Positions 2,593 to 44,490 of a stretch of 64,000 nucleotides of DNA are shown here, piece after piece (positions within the stretch are counted from its first letter, which is position 1; each line of letters starts with the position of its first letter). The stretch is from Pyrus communis (Eukaryota; Streptophyta; Magnoliopsida; Rosales; Rosaceae), in NCBI RefSeq assembly GCF_963583255.1, contig NC_084812.1, positions 23,870,959-23,934,958 on the forward strand, read 5' to 3'. The translations under genes and the position numbers were made by a program. The notes under the pieces were generated by a model. It ran no database searches, had not been told where the DNA came from, and was given only the letters and a program-made list of their open reading frames with translations.

Positions 2593-4176
2593 GAATTTAA
2601 TGCGCTACAACGATGTGGCACGTGGAGTTTGGTCCCGTTTCATCCAAAGATGAATTTGCTCCCAAATAAATGGGTGTTCAAATTGAAAAGACGTGCAGAT
2701 GGAACAATTGAGCGCTATAAGGCTCGCCTTGTCGCAAATGGTTTTCATCAGAAGGCTGGTGTGGATTATAATGAGACTTTTAGTCCTGTGGTTAAACACA
2801 GCACTATTAGGCTTGTTTTAAGTCTTGCAGTCTCCAAAGGTTGGCAAGTTAGGCAGCTTGACGTCCAAAATGCGTTTCTGCATGGTTTCTTGAACGAAGA
2901 AGTTTACATGCATCAACCGTCGGGTTTTGTTGATCAACAGTTACCCAATCATGTTTGTAAACTTCAACAGAGCATTTACGGTCTTAAACAGGCTCCGAGG
3001 GCATGGTTTCAGAGGTTTTCAGATTTTCTGCTTCAACTTGGTTTTCAGGAATCAACTTGTGATTATAGTTTGTTTGTGTTCAACCAAAAAGGGGTGTATC
3101 TTATCCTGCTCATCTACGTGGATGATATTCTGATTACTGGCAACAGTTATTCTCACATCATTCAGTTAATTCAAAAGCTGGGTACTTTGTTTTCCATGAA
3201 GGATTTGGGACTACTTAATTATTTTTTGGGTGTAGAGGTTAAGTACGATGGAAATCGAATGCATTTGTGCCAATCCAAGTATGCTCTTGACTTATTGTCA
3301 CGCACACATTTCACTGATGCCAAACCGATTTCTACACCCATGTCTTCTGGTCAAAAACTCAGTGCATATGTTGGAGATCCGTTTGATAAACCAGAAATGT
3401 ATCGTAGTGTTGTTGGTGCTCTACAATACTTAACGATAACTCGTCCCGATTTATCTTATGCAGTTAACCAAGTATGCCAGTTTATGCATGCTCCAACAAC
3501 TCTTCACTGGATGGCAGTCAAACGGATTCTACGATACTTAAAGGCGACGCATAGTCATGGTCTCCTTTACAAGCCAGGTACTACCCATCTTTCTGCTTTT
3601 TCAGATGCGGACTATGCTGGGAATCCGGATACTCGGCATTCAACTGGGGGGTTTTGTATTTATCTTGGTTCAAATCTGGTTTCATGGAGTTCAAAAAAAC
3701 AGAAAACTGTTTCTCGATCGAGTGCTGAGGCCGAGTATAGGCAACTTGCCTACACCGCAGCTGAGCTTTCGTGGTTGAGGTCTTTATTTCGGGACTTGCA
3801 GTTACATCTTACTCGACCTCAAATATGGTGTGACAATGTGTCTTCAATTGCTCTTGCTTCCAATCCGGTGTTCCATTCTAGAACCAAACATTTAGAGGTT
3901 GATTATCACTATGTCAGGGAGAAAGTGGTTCGTGGTGAACTGTTGGTTAATTATATTTGTTCACAAGATCAGCTTGCAGATTTATTTACCAAAGGTCTGT
4001 CTTCGTCTCGATTCAATTTGTTGGTGTCCAAGCTTCCAGTTGTTCCTCAACCTGTTAGCTTGCGGGGGGGTGTTAGACGAAGTCAAGCTCAAGCTGTTCT
4101 TGTTAACCCAAGTATTGGAAGAAGGACAGCAGGCCAAGTTGTACAGACAGCACAGCAAGCATTTACTGACTCATGA
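2593..4176 (+). pseudogene. copia reverse transcriptase and RNase H
   Basis: The reverse transcriptase contains the active-site box YVDD (YVDDILITG, around 3115). RNase H follows, with the acidic residue in FSDADYAG and the conserved SSAEAEYR box. The domain itself has no internal stop from 2629 to 4174. Translation ends inside the right LTR (LTR starts at 4071), as in some copia elements. The enzyme is part of an element broken upstream, so it is probably not expressed as a polyprotein. Confidence 0.9.
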
Positions 4177-29462: not shown

Positions 29463-32400
29463 GGTTTTCTTGCATCAGTATCTAATTTTTCGACATGGGG
29501 TTTGCTGCTACTTGTGAAATTTGCACTCTTTACTGTTTTTTGAAAGTTAAAAGTTCAGAATTTTGATGGGATTACTGTGTGTTTGTATTTCTTATTTACT
29601 AGAAGACTGAACTTGTATGTAAATTTGCACTTTTTTCTGTTTGTTGAAACTTGAAAGTTAGGAGTTAGAAATTTGAGGGGATTACTGTGTGTTTGTTTGT
29701 GTTTACTAACTTATGAAGAAGAAGCGTTGCTTTATTTAACTCTCTCTTCATTTTCCGCCCGTGGGCAGGTAGATGACATGACCGCGGATTTGATCATAAG
29801 CCAACTTCTATTTCTAGATGCTGAGGACCCCAAAAAGGACATTAAATTGTTTATCAATTCGCCCGGTGGTTCTGTTACTGCTGGTATGTTTTAAATATAT
29901 TCGGCATGTTTGATCCTGGCACCTCTCTTATTTCATTGCCTTTGATTCTAATATATCCCTGGTATTGGAGATAACAAGACATACAAAAAACTACATATTG
30001 TTATTACATAAGTAGGTAAATCAATTTTCAATTGTACAATTGTAACATAACTTAAAGCATTGGCATGCAAGTTAAATAGTAAATGAGAGCAGCATATCAT
30101 AACGCCAGGCTTTGGTAACAAAGCACAAAGGATTGCATATATTTACTACCTTATTTTTGCAACATAATGGATGAGGAAATGTTAAAAGGAGAGCACTGGA
30201 AGAATAAACTGCCATCAATGTAAAGGAAGTAATATATTGACTTGAGTAAGTGTGCTGCAAAACCACGAACGGTAAACTTTGATGTAATTTCTACTTACTT
30301 GTAGCTATTGATCATTACAATTATTATCTCGGATTGGGCTGTACAATGTCTGATGGCTTGGCTGGTAGCAGCAACTGTTGAAAAAACCCCGCACACTGGA
30401 CCTTGTTCTTTGATATAACCAACGGCAATAGACTAAACTAGCAAATATAGAAAACTTAGAAACACACAAGAATTATACTGGTTCGGCAGAACTTATGCCT
30501 ACATCCAGTTGTGATTTCCCTAGGTAGAGAAATCACCGCTTCTTTGATTAATAATAGAGATTACAGAACTTATGCAAACCCTAGAACTAATCTCAAACCT
30601 CTCTGCTGTTTGGCTGTTTTCTCTCTGCTGAAAATCAGCCTTGCCGCACCCTATTTATAGATATAGGGTTGGCTTACATGTCCTTTACAGATTATAATTC
30701 CTATTCTAAGTGGAATAGGAATTTAGACTTCCTTTCCAATTCCAAATAGACTTCTAGGATTTCTAATCTACATTGAATAAGGAAACTAAGATTCTTTCCT
30801 AGCCCTTTTAGGAGAAGAATTGGCGCACCCTTTCCCTAAAACAATCCTAAACAGAAAAGGACACAAATTGACGAGCCAAAAACTAACAATCTCCACCTTG
30901 GTGAGTCAAACCAAGTCTTGATCGTTTGCACCCCAGAGTATCTTTGAACCTTCTTGAAGTAGCTCTGGAAAAACTTCAAGAGTCTTCACCTTGGCAACCT
31001 CCTTCTTGCCTCATTGCACCTCAGGTGAGGAGGTGCTCCACTTTAATCAATCAACGAGATTGATCAAGTTCAAACAATGCTTGAACTTCTTGGCTGGCAC
31101 TATCTTTGTAAGGAAATCTGCGGCATTGTCATCCGTATGAACCTTTTCAATCCAAATTTCCTTAGACTCCACCCAATCTCTGATTCTGTGATATCTTGCT
31201 TCAATGTGCTTTGATCTTCCAGAAAAAACCTGATTCTTTGCCAAGTGAATGGCACTTTGACTATCACACTTAAGCTTCACACAATCTTGAGTGATTCCCA
31301 TTTGACTTACCAAGCCACTAAGCCAAATTGCTTCCTTTCCAGCTTCGGCCAATGCAATATACTCTGCCTCTGTGGTCGATAAAGCTGTAATTGGTTGCAG
31401 TAGTGCCCTCCAACTGATTGGTCCTCTTGCGCATGTAAACACATAACCAGAAGTTGACCTTCTCTTGTCCAAGTCCCCTGCATAATCGGCATCCACATAT
31501 CCTAACACCCCTGCATTTTCCTTTTGCTTCTCAAACATAATCCTTTGTCGCCAAGAACCCTTCAAATAACGCAAAATCCACTTGACTGCATCCCAATGTT
31601 GCTTTCCTGGATTTGCCATGTATCTGGAAACAACACTGATTGCTTGAGCTATGTCAGGACGTGTGCATACCATTGCATACATGAGGCAGCCCACGGCATT
31701 AGCATAAGGCACCTTCTTCATTTCTTGTTGCTCTTCCTCGGACGTAGGACACTGTTGTCCACTTAACCTGAAGTGAGCTGCCAAAGGAGTCGAAACTACC
31801 TTTGCTTCTTGCATGTTGAACTTCTCAAGAACCTTCTGAATATACTTGGCTTGTGATATCCAAATCCTTCCAGCGGTCCTATCTCTCTGAATTTCCATGC
31901 CAAGGATCTTCTGTGCGGCACCTAGATCCTTCATGTCGAACTCCTCGCTCAACATCCTTTTCAAGTCTTGAATTCTAGACTTGTCTTGACAAGCAATTAA
32001 CATGTCATCCACATATAGCAATAGCAATATGATCATCCCATCTTGGAACACATGATAGTACACACAACAGTCATACAAACACCTTCTAAAATTAATTTTC
32101 AGCATGAATGAATCAAACCTCTTGTACCACTGTCTTGGAGACTGTTTCAGGCCATACAGGGACTTCCTTAGCTGACATACTAGGTTTTCTTTCCCATATT
32201 CAACAAACCCTTCTGGTTGAGCCATGAATATCGTCTCCTCTAAATCCCCATGAAGAAACGCTGTCTTCACATCCATCTGCTCAATCTCCATGTCATGCTG
32301 AGCTGCCATTGCTAAAAGCAATCGGATAGAAGTATGCTTGACTACAGGTGAAAAGATCTCATCATAATCCACCCCTTCCTTTTGTGAGTACCCCTTAGCC

Positions 32401-35400
32401 ACGAGCCTTGCTTTGAATCTCACGGCATCTTGTTCATGTAGTCCTTCCTTTTTCCTAAATACCCACTTGCATCCAACTAGCTTTCTGTCTTTGGGTTTAG
32501 GAACCAACTCCCAAACAGAGTTCTTGTAAAGAGACTCCATTTCCTCTGTCATAGCACTTATCCAACTATCTCGCTCATCACTTGCTATAGCTTCTCGATA
32601 AGTAGTCGGATCTCCTTGACTAATGTTAAGAGCATAATTAACTTCGTTTTGGTCAAACCCAAACCTGTCAAGTTTCTTCTTGTTCCGCTTAGGTTTGTCC
32701 AGTGCTATGCATCTTTGGAATGCAGGTGGATTGTTGGGTGGAGTTTGACTCCTTTGGGATATCTGGCGGATTGGAGTACCTTCAATCTGTCCTGTTTCTT
32801 GCTCCACCTGATTCCTAACTGGTGAATGATGCTGATGCTCTTCTTCTTCCTCAAAACCATCAGATTCGGCCTCTTGCTCAATTTGCTCCACCTAAGCTTC
32901 TTCTTCATCTGAACTGATTAACGGAATCTTTGTTGCTTCAATTCCAGCATCATCCTTCTTCTCCCTACTGCTCTCGACTTTATTCAGAGGCATGGTTGTC
33001 TCATCAAAGACAACATCTCGACTGACAACCTTTTTCCTGTTGTTGAAATCCCAAAGCTTGAAACCCTTCACTCCTTTCTCAAAACCTAGGAATATGCAAT
33101 GTATAGACTTCGGTTTGAGCTTGGACCTTTCATCACTTGGAATATGTGCATAAGCACTACAGCCGAACACCCTGAGCTTGGAATAATCCACCGGCTTCTC
33201 AGACCATACCTCTTCTGCACTCTTAAAACCGAGAACTGTAGATGGTGATCTGTTAATCAAATAACTTGCATGATTAACAGCCTCTGCCCAAAAACCATCA
33301 GGCAATCCTGCATGAAATCGCATGCTCCTTTCTCTCTCCATGAGAGTTCGGTTCATCCTCTCAGCAACTCCATTTTGTTGGGGATTCTTCTTTACTGTGA
33401 AGTGCCTTATGATGCCTTCCTGCTTGCAGTAATCGGTGAACTCATTACTTGTATATTCACCTCCATTGTCACTTCTCAGATACTTGATCTTTCTTCCAGT
33501 TTGATTCTCGGTTTCTGTTTTCCATTCCTTGAACTTTGCAAAAACCTCGGATTTCTGCTTCATGAAATAAATCCAAACCTTCCTAGAAAAATCATCCATG
33601 AAAGTAAAAAAATACCTGGCTCCACCATTTGATTTAGTTGGAGCAGGACCCCAAACATCTGAGTGAATATAGCTGAGTTGCTCCTTACTTCGGCTATCTG
33701 CACTGCTACTTGCGAATGATACCTTTCTTTGCTTCCCAAGAACACAGTATTCACAAAAGTCCAGTTTGCAAGCTGACACGCCTTCCAACAGGCCTTGCTT
33801 GTGTAATTCTTGCAATCCCTTCTGGCTTATGTGCCCGAGCCTATGATGCCATAGTTCAGTCTTGTCTTCTATACTTTGATTTACAGAAACAGCTGCTCCC
33901 CCGACTATAGTGGTCCCAATTAACTTGTACAACTTATTGGGTTGTAGGTCACCCCGCATTACCACTAGCAATCCTTTGGTTACCCTGAGTCTTCCTTTTT
34001 TAGACTTGTACCCATAACCGGCCTCATCTAAAGTACCCAAGGAAATCAAATTCTTTCTTAGTCTAGGGACATACCTGACGTTCCCTAAAGCTCGTATCAT
34101 CCCATCGAACATTCAGATTCGAACAGTGCCGATTCCTCTTACAGGACATGAAGAATCATCCCCCATTAAGACTTCCCCGCTGCTGACTCCTTTGAAAGTA
34201 TCGAACCATTCTTTTACTGCACACATATGAAACGTGCATCCAGTATCCAAAATCCAATTGAAAGCCTTGGAGCCCGATGTTACCGAAAGAAGTTCCTCGT
34301 CACTCTCATGTTCGGTGACTGCACTAGCGGAACCTGAGCTTCCTTCCATCTTGGCTTTCTTTTCTTTCCAAATCTTGCAGTTCCTCTTCCAATGATCGGC
34401 TGAACCACATTCGAAGCAACCTTCCTTCTTTTCCTTTTTCTTCTTGGATTTTGAAGAGAAAAAAATTGAAGAGAAAAAAAATGAAAGAGAGTTGAGAAGT
34501 AGAGATAACTATCTGTGTCATTGTTGATATTCTTTAAAGCCTATGGAATCACTAAACTTTCAGAATGCAGACACAAAGTAATTGCATTATGTTCCTTTGA
34601 TTTTAGAGTTTTCTACAAGAAAAAAGTGTTTAGATTTCTTTTTCCCATCCTACGTGTAAAAATATTTTGAGTTTTTTCCTACTAGAAAAGTGTTTCAACT
34701 GTTTCTCCTAAGTTTTCTGCCATATATGGTGCCTTTGGATATGAGCAATGTCTATGGCTTATATGAAAAAGTCATTACCAAAAAAATATCGTTCGTATAA
34801 TTTTATTATAAATATATTTTGTGTGCCTTGTGAAGATAAGTTTTGACTTTTTGATCCGATTGTCCATTTCTTTTTATTGATTTTCTTTTCTTCTGCTTTG
34901 GATATGAGAGCGTAGTTAAAACAATACACCATTGATTTCTATTGACATGTAACAATAACAACTTGATAATTAAAAGTAGGGTATGAATTGACCAGCCCCT
35001 AGTGTTGTTTATTTATAAAATCTGTCAATTTCTAATTATGTGTTGAATCCAAGCAATTGCATATTTCATAATCTTTTTGTCTAATTTAATTGAGGAAGCT
35101 CAAGGGTGTGTGCGCATGGTCATTGATTATGCAAAACGATTTAACCACCACACTTTATAACTAGGATTTGCATCAAATTTTTTTTTTCTTGATTTTTTTT
35201 TTTTTTTTAATATTCGAGTCAGTAGTATGTAGAAGCTATGATATCTTTTATATTAAATACTCATTTTGAGTAACCTCAAGGATATATATCATGCATACTC
35301 TTTAGTTTCTACAAAAACACTTCAATAGCACCTACCACGGATGGTGGATAGTTTGTGCAATGGAATCGATATATCCATATATTATTTTGAACTTTTAGTC

Positions 35401-37584
35401 CAATTCTTCCCAGTGTAAACCACTACACGACAGGTTTTGGAAATCTATAGTTGCCTGAAGTACATAGTAAAAAAGATTAATGTAGGTGAGCAAGGTGTAG
35501 CGAGCAAAAGGTTTGGTTGGGAATAGACTAAATTTTGTTTATAAAGTTATAAAATGATGATAGTAAACAAGAACTTGACATGCTAGGGAAATACAAAGAA
35601 AAACAAAGATGATTAGCTTGGGGATAGAGTGAGTCTGCTCCCCAAAGGCATATTCTATATTCTTATAAAAACCAATGTGAAGACGATTTTAGTGTAAGGG
35701 ACAAAAATGATTACCTAGGGGAATTAGACAAGCAACAATGAATTAAAAAAGAAACAACAACACAAGAAACTAACAAGTGATACTAGTATGAGGAGGGAGA
35801 TTCTAAGTTGATTACTGTGTGGAACAAAGAAGATATGTATGGTTTGATGTTTGGGTACATTTTGTAACATCGAACAAAATTGGAGTGAGATATATGTTTG
35901 ACGTGGGGTTTTGTTTTGAGTCCACATGGTTCTTTTATCTGAAAGTCCAACAGTTTATCCGTTGTTATGCATAATGCGTATTGAAATTTGAATGAGATAG
36001 AGGACGGGAAATTTTTGTGGAAAGGAAAGAGGACAGAGGGCTGAGTAGGCTAGTGTCAATGAAAAGATTGAATGAGTTTTGCTGAAAACAAATAAAATAA
36101 TTGAAAAAGTTTCTAACTATTTCTGCTTTTGGGAAGCAAAGTAGCTGTTCTCCAGCTTTAGCCTCACCCCCCTCCCTTGTTATTGTGATGCGACGTGTGT
36201 TGGATTGAGTTGTTTTTTTCTTTTTAAAGTTCTCCACATTTTTCTTCTTTTATGTTCTTACCAACCTGCCCCATCTTGTAGGAATGGGAATATATGATGC
36301 AATGAAATTGTGCAAGGCAGATGTTTCAACTGTTTGCCTGGGGCTTGCTGCTTCTATGGGGGCCTTTCTCCTTGCTGCAGGTTCTAAAGGAAAGAGATTC
36401 TGCATGCCCAATGCAAGAGTGATGATCCATCAACCCCTTGGAACGGCAGGAGGAAAAGTAATTGCTTGTTATCTGCTTCTGTTGATGTCCATGTTTATGA
36501 GTACTGTTTGTTTTCCATAATGTTTTCAATATGATTATAAATCTGGCTTTTCACGGATACCAAAATCTTTATCCTTGATTCTACTGCATGTAGATGATGT
36601 TATCTAGTGTTTTTATTAGGAAGTTGTAGCTGACCATTAATTGCTTAAGATGCATTTACAAACTTAGTTTCCCCAAGCCTGATAGTCTCGGGCTTGAGGC
36701 ATGGTATATATTATCATATGTTGTTCTTGCAAAGTTATAGACGACCATTGTTCTTTAAGTTTGTATTAGCTCACCCCAGCCTGATGGTCTCTGGTTTGAA
36801 GTATGGTCTATGCTAGTAAGCATCTTCTTTCAGAACATTACTTCATCAATTTGATTTTTTGTAAGAATCTACGTTCTATTTTGATTGGAAAATTTGATGT
36901 TCTTTTTAATGCACAGGAAGGTAGAACAATGCAGATATGCTCTTAGATTATGTACTTGGGAAGTTCTCATTTAGATTTATTTTATTTTTACAACGATGGC
37001 CAAACTTTTGGTATTTAACATATGATGCATGCATTACCTATTTCATGGAGGACGCATACATATTGTTTGAATATGCTGTTAAGATATTGTTTTTTGTTTA
37101 CAAGGCTGATACATTTATCGGCATTTCATGTGAGTTCAGGCAACGGAAATGGGTATTCGAATCAGAGAAATGGTGTACCACAAGATTAAATTGAACAAAA
37201 TATTTTCAAGAATCACAGGGAAGCCTTTAGAGCAGGTCAGGCATCAGATAAGATCTCTCCATAGTAAATATTCTGTGAGGGTCTCCTTCCCCTTTTTTTA
37301 AGTTTATTTTGTTGGTGCAGATTGAAGAGGACACAGACCGTGATAATTTCATGAATCCTTGGGAAGCTAAGGATTACGGGTTGATTGATTTCGTTATCGA
37401 TGATGGAAAGCCAGGCTTAGTTGCGCCCGTAGGAGATTTCACACCACCACCCAGAACACGAGTCTGGGATCAATGGAAAGTTGAAGGGAGCAAGAAATCG
37501 AGAAAGAACTTGCCCTCAGAGCAAAGATTTTCCGACAATGGGAGAGAGGCTGAGAAGGAAAAGGAAGCACCCGCTGCTACATGA
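29097..37584 (+). CDS. CLPP3: Plastid ATP-dependent Clp protease proteolytic subunit 3
   Basis: Catalytic subunit of the plastid Clp protease core, which degrades stromal proteins with HSP100 chaperones. Exons 29097-29408, 29769-29883, 36282-36457, 37140-37235, 37321-37584 give 963 nt (320 aa) in phase. The first ~80 residues are Ser/Arg-rich, as expected of a chloroplast transit peptide. The ClpP fold starts at LRQRIIFLG. Catalytic triad: Ser167 (GLAASMGA), His192 (MIHQPLG) and Asp241 (DRDNFMN), all present. The C-terminal tail ([15 protein letters not shown] and on) is typical of the ClpP3 isoform. Intron 2 is 6398 bp and hosts an antisense copia element. All splice sites keep GT/AG, so the gene appears functional. 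Confidence 0.95.
29415..29457. repeat. CT microsatellite in CLPP3 intron 1
   Basis: ccctccctccctc followed by about 15 CT units, just after the exon 1 donor. Confidence 0.9.
30376..30888 (-). repeat. 3' LTR of the intronic copia element
   Basis: On the minus strand it begins TGTTAGTTTTTGGC after a GGTGGAGAT purine tract and ends TTTTTTCAACA, 513 bp. A TATA box (CTATAAATAG) lies at about 30650-30660. The LTR promoter therefore points antisense to CLPP3. Confidence 0.85.
31047..32891 (-). pseudogene. copia reverse transcriptase and RNase H (intronic element)
   Basis: Open for 614 codons. An acidic linker is followed by the reverse transcriptase with YVDDMLIAC, then RNase H with YVDADYAG and the [10 protein letters not shown] box, ending at NLINLVD. 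The sequence type resembles the Tnt1/Tork branch of copia elements, different from the element at 1-4500. It begins directly after the in-frame TAG at 32892-32894. Confidence 0.9.
32892..34112 (-). pseudogene. copia integrase (intronic element)
   Basis: The GAG-pre-integrase HHCC region (WHHRLGH ... CEYCVLGK) and the integrase core are complete. Asp is in IHSDVW, the second Asp in RSDNGGEY, and Glu in [11 protein letters not shown]. It is bounded by in-frame stops on both sides, which separate it from protease upstream and reverse transcriptase downstream. Confidence 0.9.
34113..34460 (-). pseudogene. copia gag zinc knuckle and protease (intronic element)
   Basis: Zinc knuckle [14 protein letters not shown] (C-X2-C-X4-H-X4-C) lies near 34400-34440. 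The protease motif LDTGCTFHM follows near 34240. The frame ends at a TGA at 34113-34115. Upstream of about 34460 the sequence becomes A-rich and no gag capsid region follows. Confidence 0.82.
34522..36281. other. Rest of CLPP3 intron 2, no gene seen
   Basis: AT-rich intron sequence between the truncated copia element and exon 3. Short ORFs here have no recognisable content and no LTR is found. Confidence 0.5.
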
Positions 37585-37782
37585 AACATTACACTAGTCT
37601 TGTGCTTTTTACCTCTGGTTTATTTTGATTATGTTGTAATGCTCACTCCTCATAGTATTGTAACGTAGGTCATTTGTCAAATAGTGAAAGTAGATTATTC
37701 AATATCTGCTCGGAGATTGACATATTTCTCAATTTTACGTGTCGGAAAGGGCACATTTAGATGTTTCACAGAATTTCTTCTC

Positions 37783-39812: not shown

Positions 39813-39972
39813 TGTTTGGGTTAATATTTGAACATTGGGCTTGAGTGAAGGAAAGTCCAAGGGTGCCAAATTAAAGGAGATTTGCCCGAAGCCCAGCATC
39901 AAGCCCAAAGGCAGATTGAAGCCTTCTCAAGCCACGTGCTTACATTGAAATAACAAGTGATGTAGACTAACC

Positions 39973-41199
39973 TAGGGGTGGGCATAGGCCGAGCCAGGCC
40001 TAAATTTGGAGGGACTGGACCAGACCTGCTTAAAAAGGAAATGGGATGGGTCGGGCTGGGTATTGCAAATCTAATAACTGGAACTGGACCTAACCCGGCC
40101 CATTTCAAATGGGCCGATTCAGGCCAGGTACAAGGGTCCTCTGTGTTTTTTATTTTTATTTTTTTGGAAATTACCTTAATGAAGTAAATCACATCAGTTC
40201 ATCTGAAGGCTACAATTAGTTCATAAGCTACAATGCTTTACAAAATTTTGTACGTTAACAAGCACTAAATTTTTTGACGACAACCAACTTCCCCAATAAA
40301 TTAAATCCAGACCTTAATAGTTCTCTAAAAATTATAACCAAACATAGCATTACATTAACATTTAAATATCAAATAAACTTCAAATAACCAAAAAGACAAA
40401 TAATTTCATAACAAGCAAACTAAAAACAACCCAAAAAATAACAAACAATCAAAACCCAGAAACAAAACACCTAAAAAAAGAACAAAGTTTCAATTTTTCA
40501 GAGAGGAAAAAGAAAGAGAATTGAAAAAGGAACCTGTATTCCCAAGTTTGGAAACCAGATTAGTAAAGAAGGAAATGGAGAGGCTCCCAATAGTTGAAGA
40601 CCTCGTTGCAGTCGTGTATGATGTTTGATGTGGCGCTCATGTAGCTCAGCATTCTCAGAGCCACCAGCAAAAAGAACCATCCAAACCCTTTGTCAACGAC
40701 GAACGCAAACAAGTACGGTGAGATTGGTTGCTCCATCACAAACTCATCGATGACCCTGTCGTCAGTGTTCCACAAAGTGTCGCCAGAGATCAGCGCCGAA
40801 CAAAGCGTCAACAGAGATCGAGGCTTGATGATGTTGGTAGCGGACGGAGCGAGGAAGACAAGAGTGAATCAGGAGGAGAGATTGAGGTCTGATGATGATG
40901 GTGGCGGCGAGAGAAGAAAGGAGATTCAAGGAGGAGAGATCGAGGGAGGAGAGATCCAGAAAGGGGAGAGTTGAGTGAATTGGGTATGAGAATGGAATGG
41001 AGTCAACGGTAGGAAATCAACAGTCCGGGCCGGGGACCTTTTTTTCCAATTTCTAGAACCGGCCCGCCCCGTTATTTACCTGTACCCGCCTCGCCTCGTC
41101 CCGTTTTGTATTTATAATTTTTGGACCCGCCCTGTACCTGTACCAAACCTTGATTACCCGTCCCGACCCGCGGTTCCTATACTTGTGTGCCCACCCTTA
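39973..41199. mobile_element. Non-autonomous hAT element carrying an ALG9 gene fragment (Pack-type)
   Basis: Termini are TAGGGGTGGGCA on the left and TGCCCACCCTTA on the right, inverted with one mismatch. They are flanked by a perfect 8-bp duplication, GACTAACC, at 39965-39972 and 41200-41207. TIR type and duplication length are those of hAT transposons. Both subterminal regions are rich in ggcccg/gaaccgg motifs. There is no transposase. Inside, on the minus strand, lies a copy of part of an ALG9-like gene (40534-40694). Confidence 0.88.
40534..40694 (-). pseudogene. ALG9: Captured ALG9-like mannosyltransferase exon fragment
   Basis: ALG9 adds alpha-1,2-mannose to the lipid-linked oligosaccharide in the ER. 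The minus strand reads the ALG9 N-terminal region, including MSATSNIIHDCNEVFNYWEP and HFLLY. An in-frame TAA follows (40560-40562, where Lys is usual), then SGFQTWEY. The fragment ends at a preserved splice donor (CAG/GT at 40534/40533) with intron-like sequence after it, so genomic DNA was captured, not a cDNA. The open frame upstream to 40811 is not ALG9-like and may be a second captured piece. Confidence 0.8.
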
Positions 41200-42471
41200 G
41201 ACTAACCTACTACCAGCCAAAGAACACTTTCCAGTGGTATTATAAGTATAAAGTTGATGACTCACTGCCCTCCAAGTGCTTTCGGCCAAGAGCAAAGTTA
41301 CAGTAGTCGGGCTAAACTGCCTTTAAAAGGAAGAAGAGACAACAAAGATAAGGACACTCAACCAAACAAACAAACATACAAACTTTGCTCTCAAGCCAGA
41401 TTTGCATCCAAAAGCCGAAATCAACCCAAATTCAGTTCTTTTAGCAATAATTTCCTTAGGAAAGCTATTTTTTGTCTAGTATAAAAGCTCTGCTATCTCC
41501 CTTAATGGTATAGTATCGATTCCCTCATGTAAACTTGTTTACCATCCACCTATTTTTAGCATATAACCCTTGTAAATTCAAAGATAAGTGACTACAAGAA
41601 GTTCAACCTTGTCAAACAAGGTGAAATCTTGTCTGAAGGTCTTTGTTTGTTTTCTAAATTAGTAGATCTATTACTTAATACATTCTCCAGCATGTATTCA
41701 AGTCATTTCCACCTGTTTTTCTATTTTAAGAGTTTCATTGGCATCTGGATCTGGTTAGTATAATGGATATGTTTTCATTAAGAGTAATCTAGGACCAAAC
41801 AAATGATCTAAGGGGATAAGGACTCCCTTCATTCGAACATACAAGACCATGAACTAAAAGTCTTTGTTTATAAGGCAAGAAAAAGAACTTAATGTGGACT
41901 TAACCCATCCACGACAATCCTTTGATAATAAGAAGTTTGAAGTAACTTGGGACGCAAGTAATCAACTTAAAACACATTTGTTCTACGTCTGCTATACTAA
42001 GATAGCAGTGGCACGCCTAGCACTTAGTTAGTTTTGACTGCAAGCCTCAAGGCCTACACCTAAGGCCCCACAAAAGCACATTTTAGAATTAACTTTGTCC
42101 TCTTCTTGTAGCAAATCAACAAGCAAGAACCCAACTACACATCCAAAATACTAATCCCTTGGGGAGCTGTGCTAAGATCCGAGGAGCCTTATCTAGAGAA
42201 ATTTTTGCCTGAGCAAATCGAAATGACCAGGAAGCACAGGGCATATTTGCACCGGTACTTACCGGACGGTCAAACCCAGATCAAGGCCATTATTTCGGCT
42301 TTTGGAGAAGTCGACTCCTTTTCTCGCGAAAGAGGGACCCTTGAAGACTAATTGTCTACCCTCGAACCTATTTTGGATGAATTGGAATCCTGTATGGTTT
42401 ATTAGGTGTTTTTGTTTTTATAAATTGTATATTTTCTTAATCTTCTGTGCTTAGTCAACACCTACTTCTAT

Positions 42472-43260
42472 TCTAGGTTCCCCTGTTACGGAGGAGTACA
42501 CTGCACAACAACAGGAAAGTGAGGAGGACAAGCGTAAGTCTCGGGTATGCTTAGACTTGCTACTTCTACGCACGCGTTCGCTAATATGCAGATGAAACAC
42601 CTTTCCATCTAGAGTTTCATGCTTTCTGCAGTGCAAATAACATTCAATGCCCATCTTATGATCCTTTAGTTTAATCTGTTGCGTAAAATGCTAAATGTAG
42701 CCTAATTGCTACCAGAAAAATAGATATAATATCATTCTTCTATGTCAATTTGGCAGTTTTAGTCTCCTCATATCCATGTGTATGTCCTAAGTCTTGGATA
42801 TGGTAGATCATCTTGATAATAGCTATAAAAACATGTTGTTATCACTATGTATCACCGTTCATTTGGCATATTCATTGTTTCTGCTGCTCTTATGGATTGT
42901 GCGGGGCATGCCAATCGAAATTAGGAGAAAGATAATAACAATTTGGCCTATGGTTAATCTTTACAGGAGAAAAAACGGCTTCTAGAACAATTTAATGCAA
43001 AACAAGAGGCAATTTTTGGTTCAAGGCCTTCTACAAAGAAGCCATTGGGACAGAGCACCAATGCTAACACCATGGTTGGCACACCAATCAGTCGAGTACA
43101 CCCTTAGGCTGTCATGGAGTCTTAGATGGAAATGAACGCAGAGAAAGCGGAAGGGCACATAACGCAATGCCCATTAACTATGTTGTTCTTCAAAAGGACG
43201 ATTCAGTTCCTCAAAGAAACTAAAGAGCACATCTCAATCACTATTTTCGATTAACCAAAT
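42472..43260 (+). pseudogene. MAP65 pseudogene, 3' exons
   Basis: An exon at about 42478-42531 reads VTEEYTAQQQESEEDK before a GTAAGT donor. After an acceptor near 42966 comes EKKRLLEQFNAKQEAIFGS, a K-P-L-G-Q-S-T stretch and MVGTPISRV. A stop and frame changes follow, then PINYVVLQKDDSV in another frame at about 43171-43209. This is the C-terminal end of a MAP65-3-like protein. The central exons between the two relic halves are missing. Confidence 0.7.
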
Positions 43261-43519: not shown

Positions 43520-44490
43520 AGTTCAATGTGATTGGTTTTTGACCAACTTGATGTTAGCAAATACCTTCTTACATGACAATCTTTGAGATACTGTTTTCAT
43601 GAAACAACCACCAGGCTTAATTAAGCCTCATCATATCTGTCAACACCATAAATCCCTCTATAGTATGAAACAAGCTAAATTACATGGTGCTTTAAATTCT
43701 CTTGGTTTCATTGGTTCCCAGAATGATCACTCATTATTTGTCAAAAAGGTTCCCTCACTGGTTTTTGTTCTAGTGTATATTGATGATATCATTGTGACTG
43801 GACCTTCTTCTTAAGAATGTCAAGATACTATCTCTAAACTTAGTGCCATGTTTCCTATTAAAGATCTTGGACCATTACATTACTTTCTTGGTCTTGAAGT
43901 TAAAAGATCCACCATTGGCATCTTTATTTCTCAGACCAAATATGTATGGGATCTTCTCAAGAAAGCAAAAATGGATGGTGCGAAACCTTGCTCTACTCCA
44001 CCGAGTACTTCAAAATTGGATCATTCATCTCCTCTGCTTATGAATCCTGCAGAATATAGATCTCCTATTGGTGGATTGCAGTATCTCATATGAACCAGAC
44101 TTATCCTTTGCAATTAACCTTGTCTGGCAGTTCATTCACAGTCCAGTGCATCTCATTTCCAAGTAGTGAAACGAACTCGTAGATATCTCAAAGGTTCTTT
44201 GGATCTTGGACTATGGTTTTCTAAATGTTCTACACCTCTCATTATAAATGCATTTTCAAATGATGATTGGGCATGTTGCTCCATTGATAGAAAATCCACA
44301 GGTGGGTTTTGTGTTTTCCTGGGCAACTCCATCATTAATTGGAGTGCCAAGAAACAACTCACAATAGCAGGACATCAACTGAAGCAGAGTATAGATCATT
44401 CGCTAACATTGCTGCAGAACTTACTTGGATATGAAAATTGTTAGTTGATGTTGGTCTGATCCTTCCTTGTCCTCCCAAGCTGTTACTTGT
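43520..44490 (+). pseudogene. copia reverse transcriptase / RNase H remnant
   Basis: Reverse-transcriptase pieces in several frames: a block with YIDDIIVTG (43599-43814), a block MFPIKDLGPLHYFLGLEVK (43848-44093) and an RNase H block with RYLKGS, FSNDDW and KSTGGFCVFLG (44166-44444). Stops and shifts separate them. No gag, protease or integrase is present. It is a third copia lineage in the window. Confidence 0.85.

What the first reader, a model, noticed from the sequence alone, without database searches (positions are those of the whole stretch)
39973..41199. hAT transposon that has captured a host glycosylation-gene fragment
The sequence shows hAT-type TIRs and a perfect 8-bp target duplication (GACTAACC) around 1227 bp that contain no transposase. 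Instead there is an ALG9-like exon fragment with its splice donor and adjoining intron-like bases. Gene capture by hAT elements (Pack-type elements) is known but much less described than for MULEs. The open frame fused upstream (to 40811) is not ALG9-like, so it may be chimeric from two sources.
Basis: partly seen in the sequence, partly recalled or inferred. Interest (0 to 1): 0.75.

Follow-up and report, generated by a model that had tools for sequence, protein, structure and literature searches.

The report
hAT transposon carrying two host-gene pieces
A small jumping gene in an apple- or pear-like plant genome carries pieces of two unrelated host genes joined together, and comparison with its relatives suggests it was put together from halves of two older gene-carrying transposons.

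Summary
The finding holds and goes further. Window 39973-41199 is a 1227-bp non-autonomous hAT-type element: 12-bp TIRs with one mismatch and an exact 8-bp TSD, GACTAACC. It sits in a repeat; 8 of 8 other copies fetched are uninterrupted at that point. It holds 525 bp of ALG9 exon 1 plus intron 1, 92% identical to an ALG9 gene on contig C8. Both pieces lie on one strand and in one reading frame, but the ALG9 part has a stop, so this is most likely a relic and not a gene.

The two ends resemble different subfamilies. The 5' end is 82-84% identical to elements E16 and E20 but 65-67% to the LTA4H elements E12 and E13; the 3' end is the reverse (59-61% versus 84-86%). The same LTA4H right half occurs with other left halves, one with a response-regulator-like gene piece. 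Pack-hATs are already published, so this is a new member of a known kind, with good (not conclusive) evidence for exchange of half-elements.

The parts
39965..39972 (.). left copy of the 8-bp target-site duplication GACTAACC
39973..40167 (+). transposon 5' module: TIR TAGGGGTGGGCA plus subterminal region ending in a T-rich tract; shared with many other places
40168..40692 (-). captured ALG9 fragment (525 bp; 92% identical to C8:3906787-3907312)
40168..40533 (-). part of ALG9 intron 1, beginning with the splice donor GT (40532-40533)
40534..40692 (-). part of ALG9 exon 1 (159 bp) with a premature stop TAA at 40560-40562 (Lys codon in the donor)
40696..40799 (-). second captured fragment: exon piece of a leukotriene A-4 hydrolase-like M1 aminopeptidase (83.7% to C5 locus L050 647-750); 40693-40695 at the junction are ambiguous, and with other scoring the match starts a little further left, overlapping the ALG9 end
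40800..41199 (+). transposon 3' module: internal region with short GA-rich repeats, 3' subterminal region and inverted TIR; shared with E11, E12, E13
40560..40868 (-). 102-codon chimeric open frame: transposon-derived start, LTA4H piece and ALG9 piece in one frame, ended by the nonsense codon
41200..41207 (.). right copy of the target-site duplication GACTAACC

Best explanation
A non-autonomous Pack-hAT. It carries DNA copies of two unrelated host genes between hAT ends and was moved to its present site (inside a high-copy repeat) by a hAT transposase supplied elsewhere. Shown: the ends, TSD and empty site; both donor loci; genomic-DNA origin (the intron is present); a second, truncated place with the same TE|ALG9 junction; and ends that resemble two different subfamilies. 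Inferred: movement by a transposase in trans, and a two-step origin. First, an LTA4H exon piece was captured next to the 3' module; four elements share that right-hand boundary. Later, the left half was replaced by that of an ALG9-carrying Pack-hAT, probably by template switching during repair after excision or by recombination between two elements. The captured genes are decaying passengers, not a working fusion gene. The stated confidence is for the two-gene Pack-hAT; how the halves were joined is open between this route and rivals 1 and 2.
For: Exact TSD and 8 of 8 uninterrupted repeat copies. ALG9 donor with sharp limits and intron included. LTA4H donor. The right limit of LTA4H is shared by EW, E11, E12 and E13 (L050 748-750) while the left limits differ (647, 626, 623, 588). 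The same TE|ALG9 junction occurs at L014, C8:25.62 Mb, whose flanks do not match the window's. Subfamily switch: 5' identity 84.3/82.0% to E16/E20 against 66.7/64.8% to E12/E13; 3' identity 61.1/58.5% against 86.0/84.2%; Fisher p 1.3e-12 to 6.1e-11 for those four pairs and 8.5e-9 to 1.8e-4 for the other six pairs tried. The 3' tree groups EW+E11+E12+E13 with 96/91 support, and AU rejects EW+E20 there, p=0.0005. LTA4H is more diverged (17/104) than ALG9 (41/525), p=0.009, as expected if it was captured first. The ALG9 exon carries 8 EW-lineage changes including a stop, against 1 on the donor lineage.
Against: The 5' tree is poorly resolved and its bootstrap had not settled: EW+E20+L014 has support of only 34/78, and AU rejected none of the 5 alternative groupings tried, EW+E12+E13 included (p=0.126). 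L014 lacks its 3' half, so it cannot show that the whole chimera moved; only the left junction is at two places. Of the 8 bases that L014 and EW share against the donor, 4 are changes on the donor lineage and only 2 are shared derived. The LTA4H piece is short (104 bp), and its left limit in EW moves to L050 633 with other scoring. No autonomous partner was sought beyond ORF checks, and no RNA or population data were available.
Confidence: 0.85

Rival explanations
1. One Pack-hAT lineage captured LTA4H and then ALG9 by successive gap repair at a single element, without exchange of a half between two elements.
For: The left limits of LTA4H step inward in different elements, as serial one-sided replacement by repair would give. 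The AU test on the 5' ends does not exclude a common history with E12 and E13.
Against: EW's 5' end (first 172 bp) resembles a different subfamily from its 3' end, and the TE|ALG9 junction exists at another place, L014, so the ALG9 cargo probably came together with a 5' end.
Confidence: 0.25
2. Tandem-insertion hybrid: two neighbouring Pack-hATs were mobilised as one composite through outer ends and the inner ends were lost (the model discussed by Gisby and Catoni).
For: Proposed for Pack-TYPE elements of DNA superfamilies, with similar sequence-acquisition events noted for hAT (PMC8903248, passages). The two halves carry ends that resemble different subfamilies.
Against: The two cargo pieces abut within about 3 bp; no inner TIR or chromosomal spacer is visible between them. 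A large deletion would be needed as well.
Confidence: 0.3
3. Ordinary ALG9 pseudogene or segmental duplication into which hAT-like ends fell by chance.
For: The ALG9 exon is broken by a stop.
Against: Exact TSD, empty site, ends shared with 25 other elements kept for having both ends and a TSD of at most 3 mismatches, and abrupt loss of donor homology at both junctions.
Confidence: 0.02
4. A functional chimeric gene: the in-frame LTA4H-ALG9 frame is expressed and selected.
For: One 102-codon open frame spans both pieces. Same strand and frame would be expected about 1 time in 6 by chance, so this is weak.
Against: A stop in the ALG9 part, and amino-acid changes P>L, G>R, R>S, D>N while the donor exon has one change on its own lineage. 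Neither protein domain is complete.
Confidence: 0.03

Closest known systems
Pack-hAT elements among Pack-TYPE transposons of maize and rice (PMC8903248, passages seen)
   Same: TIRs, 8-bp TSD, non-autonomous, host gene DNA inside; sequence-acquisition events like the fusion of two element groups are noted for hAT too
   Different: Found here in an apple- or pear-like genome; two donor genes located; the two ends resemble different subfamilies
Ds2 and Ds-l4 elements with gene fragments in maize (PMC3260210, passages seen)
   Same: About 1 kb, variable filler, some filler from host genes with introns, often inserted in repeats
   Different: Different TIR family (Ac/Ds); the examples whose donor is named in the passages seen have one gene source each, though a compound element is also described
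Pack-TIRs of animals, most of them hAT or TcMariner (PMC8277862, passages seen)
   Same: Captured DNA, often with short microhomology at a junction; gap-filling and template-switching models
   Different: Those are mostly single-copy; here related elements share halves with different cargo
Pack-MULEs of rice (recalled; mentioned in the papers above)
   Same: Capture of several gene pieces in one element (recalled)
   Different: Different superfamily: longer TIRs and 9-11-bp TSD (recalled)

Membership tests
hAT superfamily | 8-bp target-site duplication | tested here: met
   GACTAACC exact on both sides; 8 of 8 fetched repeat copies uninterrupted
hAT superfamily | short TIRs with subterminal repeats | tested here: met
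   12-bp TIR, 11 of 12 matching; repeated G/C-rich subterminal motifs. That TAGGGGTGGGCA is a hAT-type end is recalled, not from a call
hAT superfamily | moved by a hAT transposase | not testable with these tools
   No transposase frame found inside; the autonomous partner was not identified
Pack-TYPE (Pack-hAT) | host gene fragment between TIRs, with the donor gene elsewhere in the genome | tested here: met
   ALG9 on C8 and LTA4H-like on C5
Pack-TYPE (Pack-hAT) | no transposase gene in the element | tested here: met
   6 frames in or overlapping the element against Pfam
Pack-TYPE (Pack-hAT) | captured DNA mobilised to more than one place | tested here: inconclusive
   TE|ALG9 junction also at L014, but that copy is truncated. 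The E20-type ALG9 piece recurs at 3 places with the same limits, one of them 2 bases shorter at one end
Pack-MULE | long TIRs, 9-11-bp TSD (recalled) | tested here: not met
   12-bp TIR, 8-bp TSD
Processed pseudogene (retrocopy) | introns removed | tested here: not met
   366 bp of ALG9 intron 1 present

The most novel reading that the evidence does not exclude
In this genome, Pack-hATs evolve by routine exchange of half-elements. A 5' module (end plus cargo) and a 3' module (end plus cargo) behave as separately inherited units that are re-paired by repair-linked template switching. Gene fragments are therefore combined in pairs without any new capture from a gene.
Probability: 0.4. Interest if true: 0.65.

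Novelty: new member of a known kind. Interest (0 to 1): 0.45.

Why it matters
How cut-and-paste transposons acquire and combine gene pieces is still open; a 2026 review (PMC13317346, passages) says there might be an alternative, undiscovered capture mechanism. A hAT family with located donors, shared and stepped breakpoints, and ends that look mixed in ancestry lets the competing models (gap filling, tandem hybrid, template switching between elements) be compared breakpoint by breakpoint. It also warns annotators: fragments like this can yield false ALG9- or aminopeptidase-like gene models.

Tried and rejected
Tried without result: DNA search of plasmid records (no match). Pfam on 10 frames, 9 from other elements and 1 from L051, gave one hit above its cutoff (RAM2-like GPAT, 27.2 against 27.0) and one below; 10 further frames, 5 from the window and 5 from other elements, gave none. 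Considered and rejected: chance TIRs, segmental duplication, retrocopy, Pack-MULE, working fusion gene (see rivals and membership). A weak PDB match to LTA4H (E=1.4) looked like noise at first; the C5 locus showed it was real.

Results against my reading: AU on the 5' ends rejects none of the 5 alternative groupings tried. The end-switch test is not unique to EW: 13 of the 25 other elements have at least one switch at p<1e-6, up to 15 of 600 triples (E27), against 24 of 600 for EW. The lack of correlation between 5' and 3' identity (Spearman -0.04, p=0.50; -0.14, p=0.014 without pairs of the full-length cluster) may partly reflect how loci were chosen, namely by similarity to one or other end of EW. 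E13 and L051, which both carry the response-regulator-like piece, share 7 bases against C4 over 260 sites, of which 5 are C4-lineage changes and 1 is shared derived, so those captures may be independent. L063 and L064 have no identified 5' end, so they are incomplete copies.

Rows dropped: of 39 loci L011-L049 examined, 25 were kept as elements, 13 had no TIR pair with a TSD of at most 3 mismatches, and 1 (L048, 4545 bp, poor ends) was set aside by hand. In the 25, the TSD is exact in 13, has 1 mismatch in 7, 2 in 3 and 3 in 2.

Full report
What is there. The window lies in an unnamed plant genome (G000, 487 Mb in 29 contigs; window = C10:23870959-23934958). The best protein hit to the ALG9-like frame is a Malus baccata model whose tail reads through the same intron (P0001), so an apple- or pear-like (Maleae) genome is likely; that is inference. 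In this report EW is the window's element, E11 to E45 are relatives numbered by locus, and q is the position within EW.

Observation. The element runs 39973-41199. Its 12-bp ends match at 11 of 12 positions and it is flanked by an exact 8-bp repeat, GACTAACC. The right flank is a repeat: the search scored 40 of 557 candidates and all 40 matched, one of them the window itself, the others at 83-87%. Eight copies were fetched, and 8 of 8 run straight through the target with no insertion; 4 of 8 have the exact octamer and the other 4 differ at one base. The same alignment shows the repeat starting near 39813, because the copies have unrelated DNA to the left. The hAT therefore landed in an older repeat. 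No transposase frame was found: 6 frames in or overlapping the element were tested.

Donor 1, ALG9. q196-720 (40168-40692) matches C8:3906787-3907312 at 92%. The match stops sharply at both ends, and donor DNA beyond it is unlike EW. The donor locus has further ALG9 exons (L009; Glyco_transf_22 in both frames tested), and a second ALG9 copy, probably a homeolog, lies on C14 (73% to EW). The piece is 159 bp of exon 1 plus 366 bp of intron 1, so capture was from genomic DNA. K2P is 0.059 in the exon and 0.093 in the intron. Polarised with the C14 copy, the exon has 8 changes on the EW lineage and 1 on the donor's; the intron has 18 and 8, with 4 unresolved. The EW exon changes give P>L, G>R, R>S, D>N and a stop. 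14 of 26 polarised EW changes are C>T or G>A, as in methylated, silenced DNA (inference). With recalled rates of 4e-9 to 1.3e-8 per site per year, the intron value would mean roughly 4 to 12 million years; treat this as an order of magnitude only.

Donor 2, LTA4H-like. q724-827 (40696-40799) matches C5 locus L050 647-750 at 83.7%; with other scoring the match begins at L050 633, overlapping the end of the ALG9 piece. L050 encodes a leukotriene A-4 hydrolase-like M1 aminopeptidase (Pfam Peptidase_M1 and Peptidase_M1_N; PDB LTA4H E=3e-77). BLASTP of the window frame to it covers ALISGDxLW..DDRV..EFVMEQPI.PYLFAF. Both gene pieces are read on the minus strand in one 102-codon frame, which chance would give about once in six; the stop and the substitutions argue against function. 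LTA4H is more diverged (17/104) than ALG9 (41/525), p=0.009, which fits an earlier capture.

Relatives. The first search returned 53 matches, with 40 of 307 candidates scored, so this is a lower bound. Of 39 loci examined, 25 were taken as elements with both ends and a TSD of at most 3 mismatches, exact in 13 of 25. Interiors fall into groups with different cargo: E16, E17, E18, E19 and E21 are full-length relatives; so are E23, E29 and E30 (E35 and E27 share parts of them), which carry a piece resembling a RAM2-like glycerol-3-phosphate acyltransferase (Pfam just above cutoff in E23), with a 94% match over 147 bp at C5:17329563, not examined further. E11, E12, E13 and EW share the LTA4H piece and 3' module. 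E13 also carries 5' DNA of a gene that I read as a type-B response regulator (name recalled from the peptide MAxPDRFPAxLRVLVVDDD; Pfam gave no hit). Its likely gene is at C4:1083929-1084346 (95% to L051; E13 89.7%), with a second copy on C6; these two places were not tested for transposon ends. L051, a truncated element, carries an overlapping piece of that gene with other limits.

How EW was put together. First, four elements share the right-hand limit of LTA4H (L050 748-750), but the left limits are 647 (EW), 626 (E11), 623 (E12) and 588 (E13); one capture followed by replacement of what lay to the left is the simplest reading. Second, L014 (C8:25.62 Mb) has the same TE|ALG9 junction (q139-338 at 86%) and then is cut off; its flanks do not match the window's. 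Over 144 sites L014 and EW share 8 bases against the donor: 4 are donor-lineage changes, 2 are shared derived relative to C14, and 2 are unresolved. Third, EW's ends disagree: 5' identity is 84.3% to E16 and 82.0% to E20, but 66.7% to E12 and 64.8% to E13; 3' identity is 61.1%, 58.5%, 86.0% and 84.2% respectively. Fisher p for those four pairs is 1.3e-12 to 6.1e-11; for the other six pairs tried it is 8.5e-9 to 1.8e-4. On the 3' tree, EW+E11+E12+E13 has 96/91 support and AU rejects EW+E20 (p=0.0005). On the 5' tree, EW lies apart from E12/E40/E43 (88/86) and E13/E25/E26 (95/82), but the bootstrap had not settled and AU rejects none of 5 alternative groupings (EW+E12+E13 p=0.126), so this side is suggestive only.

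A second ALG9 capture type. E20 carries the neighbouring 109 bp of the same exon (85%, overlapping EW's piece by 16 bp). Its limits recur at C2 (identical) and C1 (2 bases shorter at one end). L064 (C1) is 90% identical to E20 over most of its length; L063 (C2) matches E20 only in its left half, and among the sequences compared its 3' end is nearest E43 at 74%. Neither has an identified 5' end. This may be another case of one left half with two different right halves.

How general. Across 26 elements, 5' and 3' identities are uncorrelated (Spearman -0.04, p=0.50), and EW has the most end-switch triples (24 of 600 at p<1e-6). 13 of the 25 others have at least one (E27 15); E12, E13 and the five full-length relatives have none. 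The sample was drawn by similarity to EW's ends, so this is a lead rather than a measurement.

Mechanism. Transposition by a hAT transposase in trans is inferred from the TSD and TIRs. Joining of halves could be template switching during repair after excision, recombination between elements, or the tandem-hybrid route described for Pack-TYPE elements (PMC8903248, passages). The two cargoes abut within about 3 bp with no spacer, which favours the first two slightly.

Known or new. Gene capture by hATs is in print: Ds2/Ds-l4 of maize, called rare there (PMC3260210, passages), Pack-hAT in maize and rice (PMC8903248, passages) and animals (PMC8277862, passages). A full-text search for Pack-hAT in the held library found 2 papers. 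Searches for Malus, Pyrus or Rosaceae together with hAT and capture terms listed none whose title or abstract start describes this (listings only); a listed survey of Rosaceae transposons (PMC11197308) was not opened. I therefore file it as a new member of a known kind, with good but not conclusive evidence for a mosaic origin.

Noticed in passing
window 39813-39964 and 41208-41807: The element's flanks are a repeat with at least 40 copies in the genome (others at 83-87% identity) that begins near 39813 with TGTTTGGG; possibly an LTR-type repeat (class not tested).
   Followed up: partly
L020 (C12), L063 (C2), L064 (C1): A separate small set of hAT-type copies carries the adjoining 109-bp piece of the same ALG9 exon, with the same or nearly the same limits at three places.
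   Followed up: partly
L013 1861-2900, L051, L061, L062: Pieces of the 5' end of a response-regulator-like gene (likely gene at C4:1.08 Mb, second copy on C6) sit in two hAT-type copies with different limits.
   Followed up: partly
L023, L029, L030: Related hAT elements share a piece resembling a RAM2-like glycerol-3-phosphate acyltransferase, with a 94% match at C5:17329563-17329709.
   Followed up: partly
window 36209-37585: Exons of a Clp protease subunit gene (CLP_protease) upstream of the element's neighbourhood.
   Followed up: no
window 42960-43110: A broken stretch resembling the C-terminus of a MAP65-type protein (recalled resemblance, not tested), possibly another pseudogene fragment.
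   Followed up: no
window 2593-4173, 31050-32891, 43815-44090: Copia-type reverse transcriptase frames (RVT_2), the third one short.
   Followed up: no
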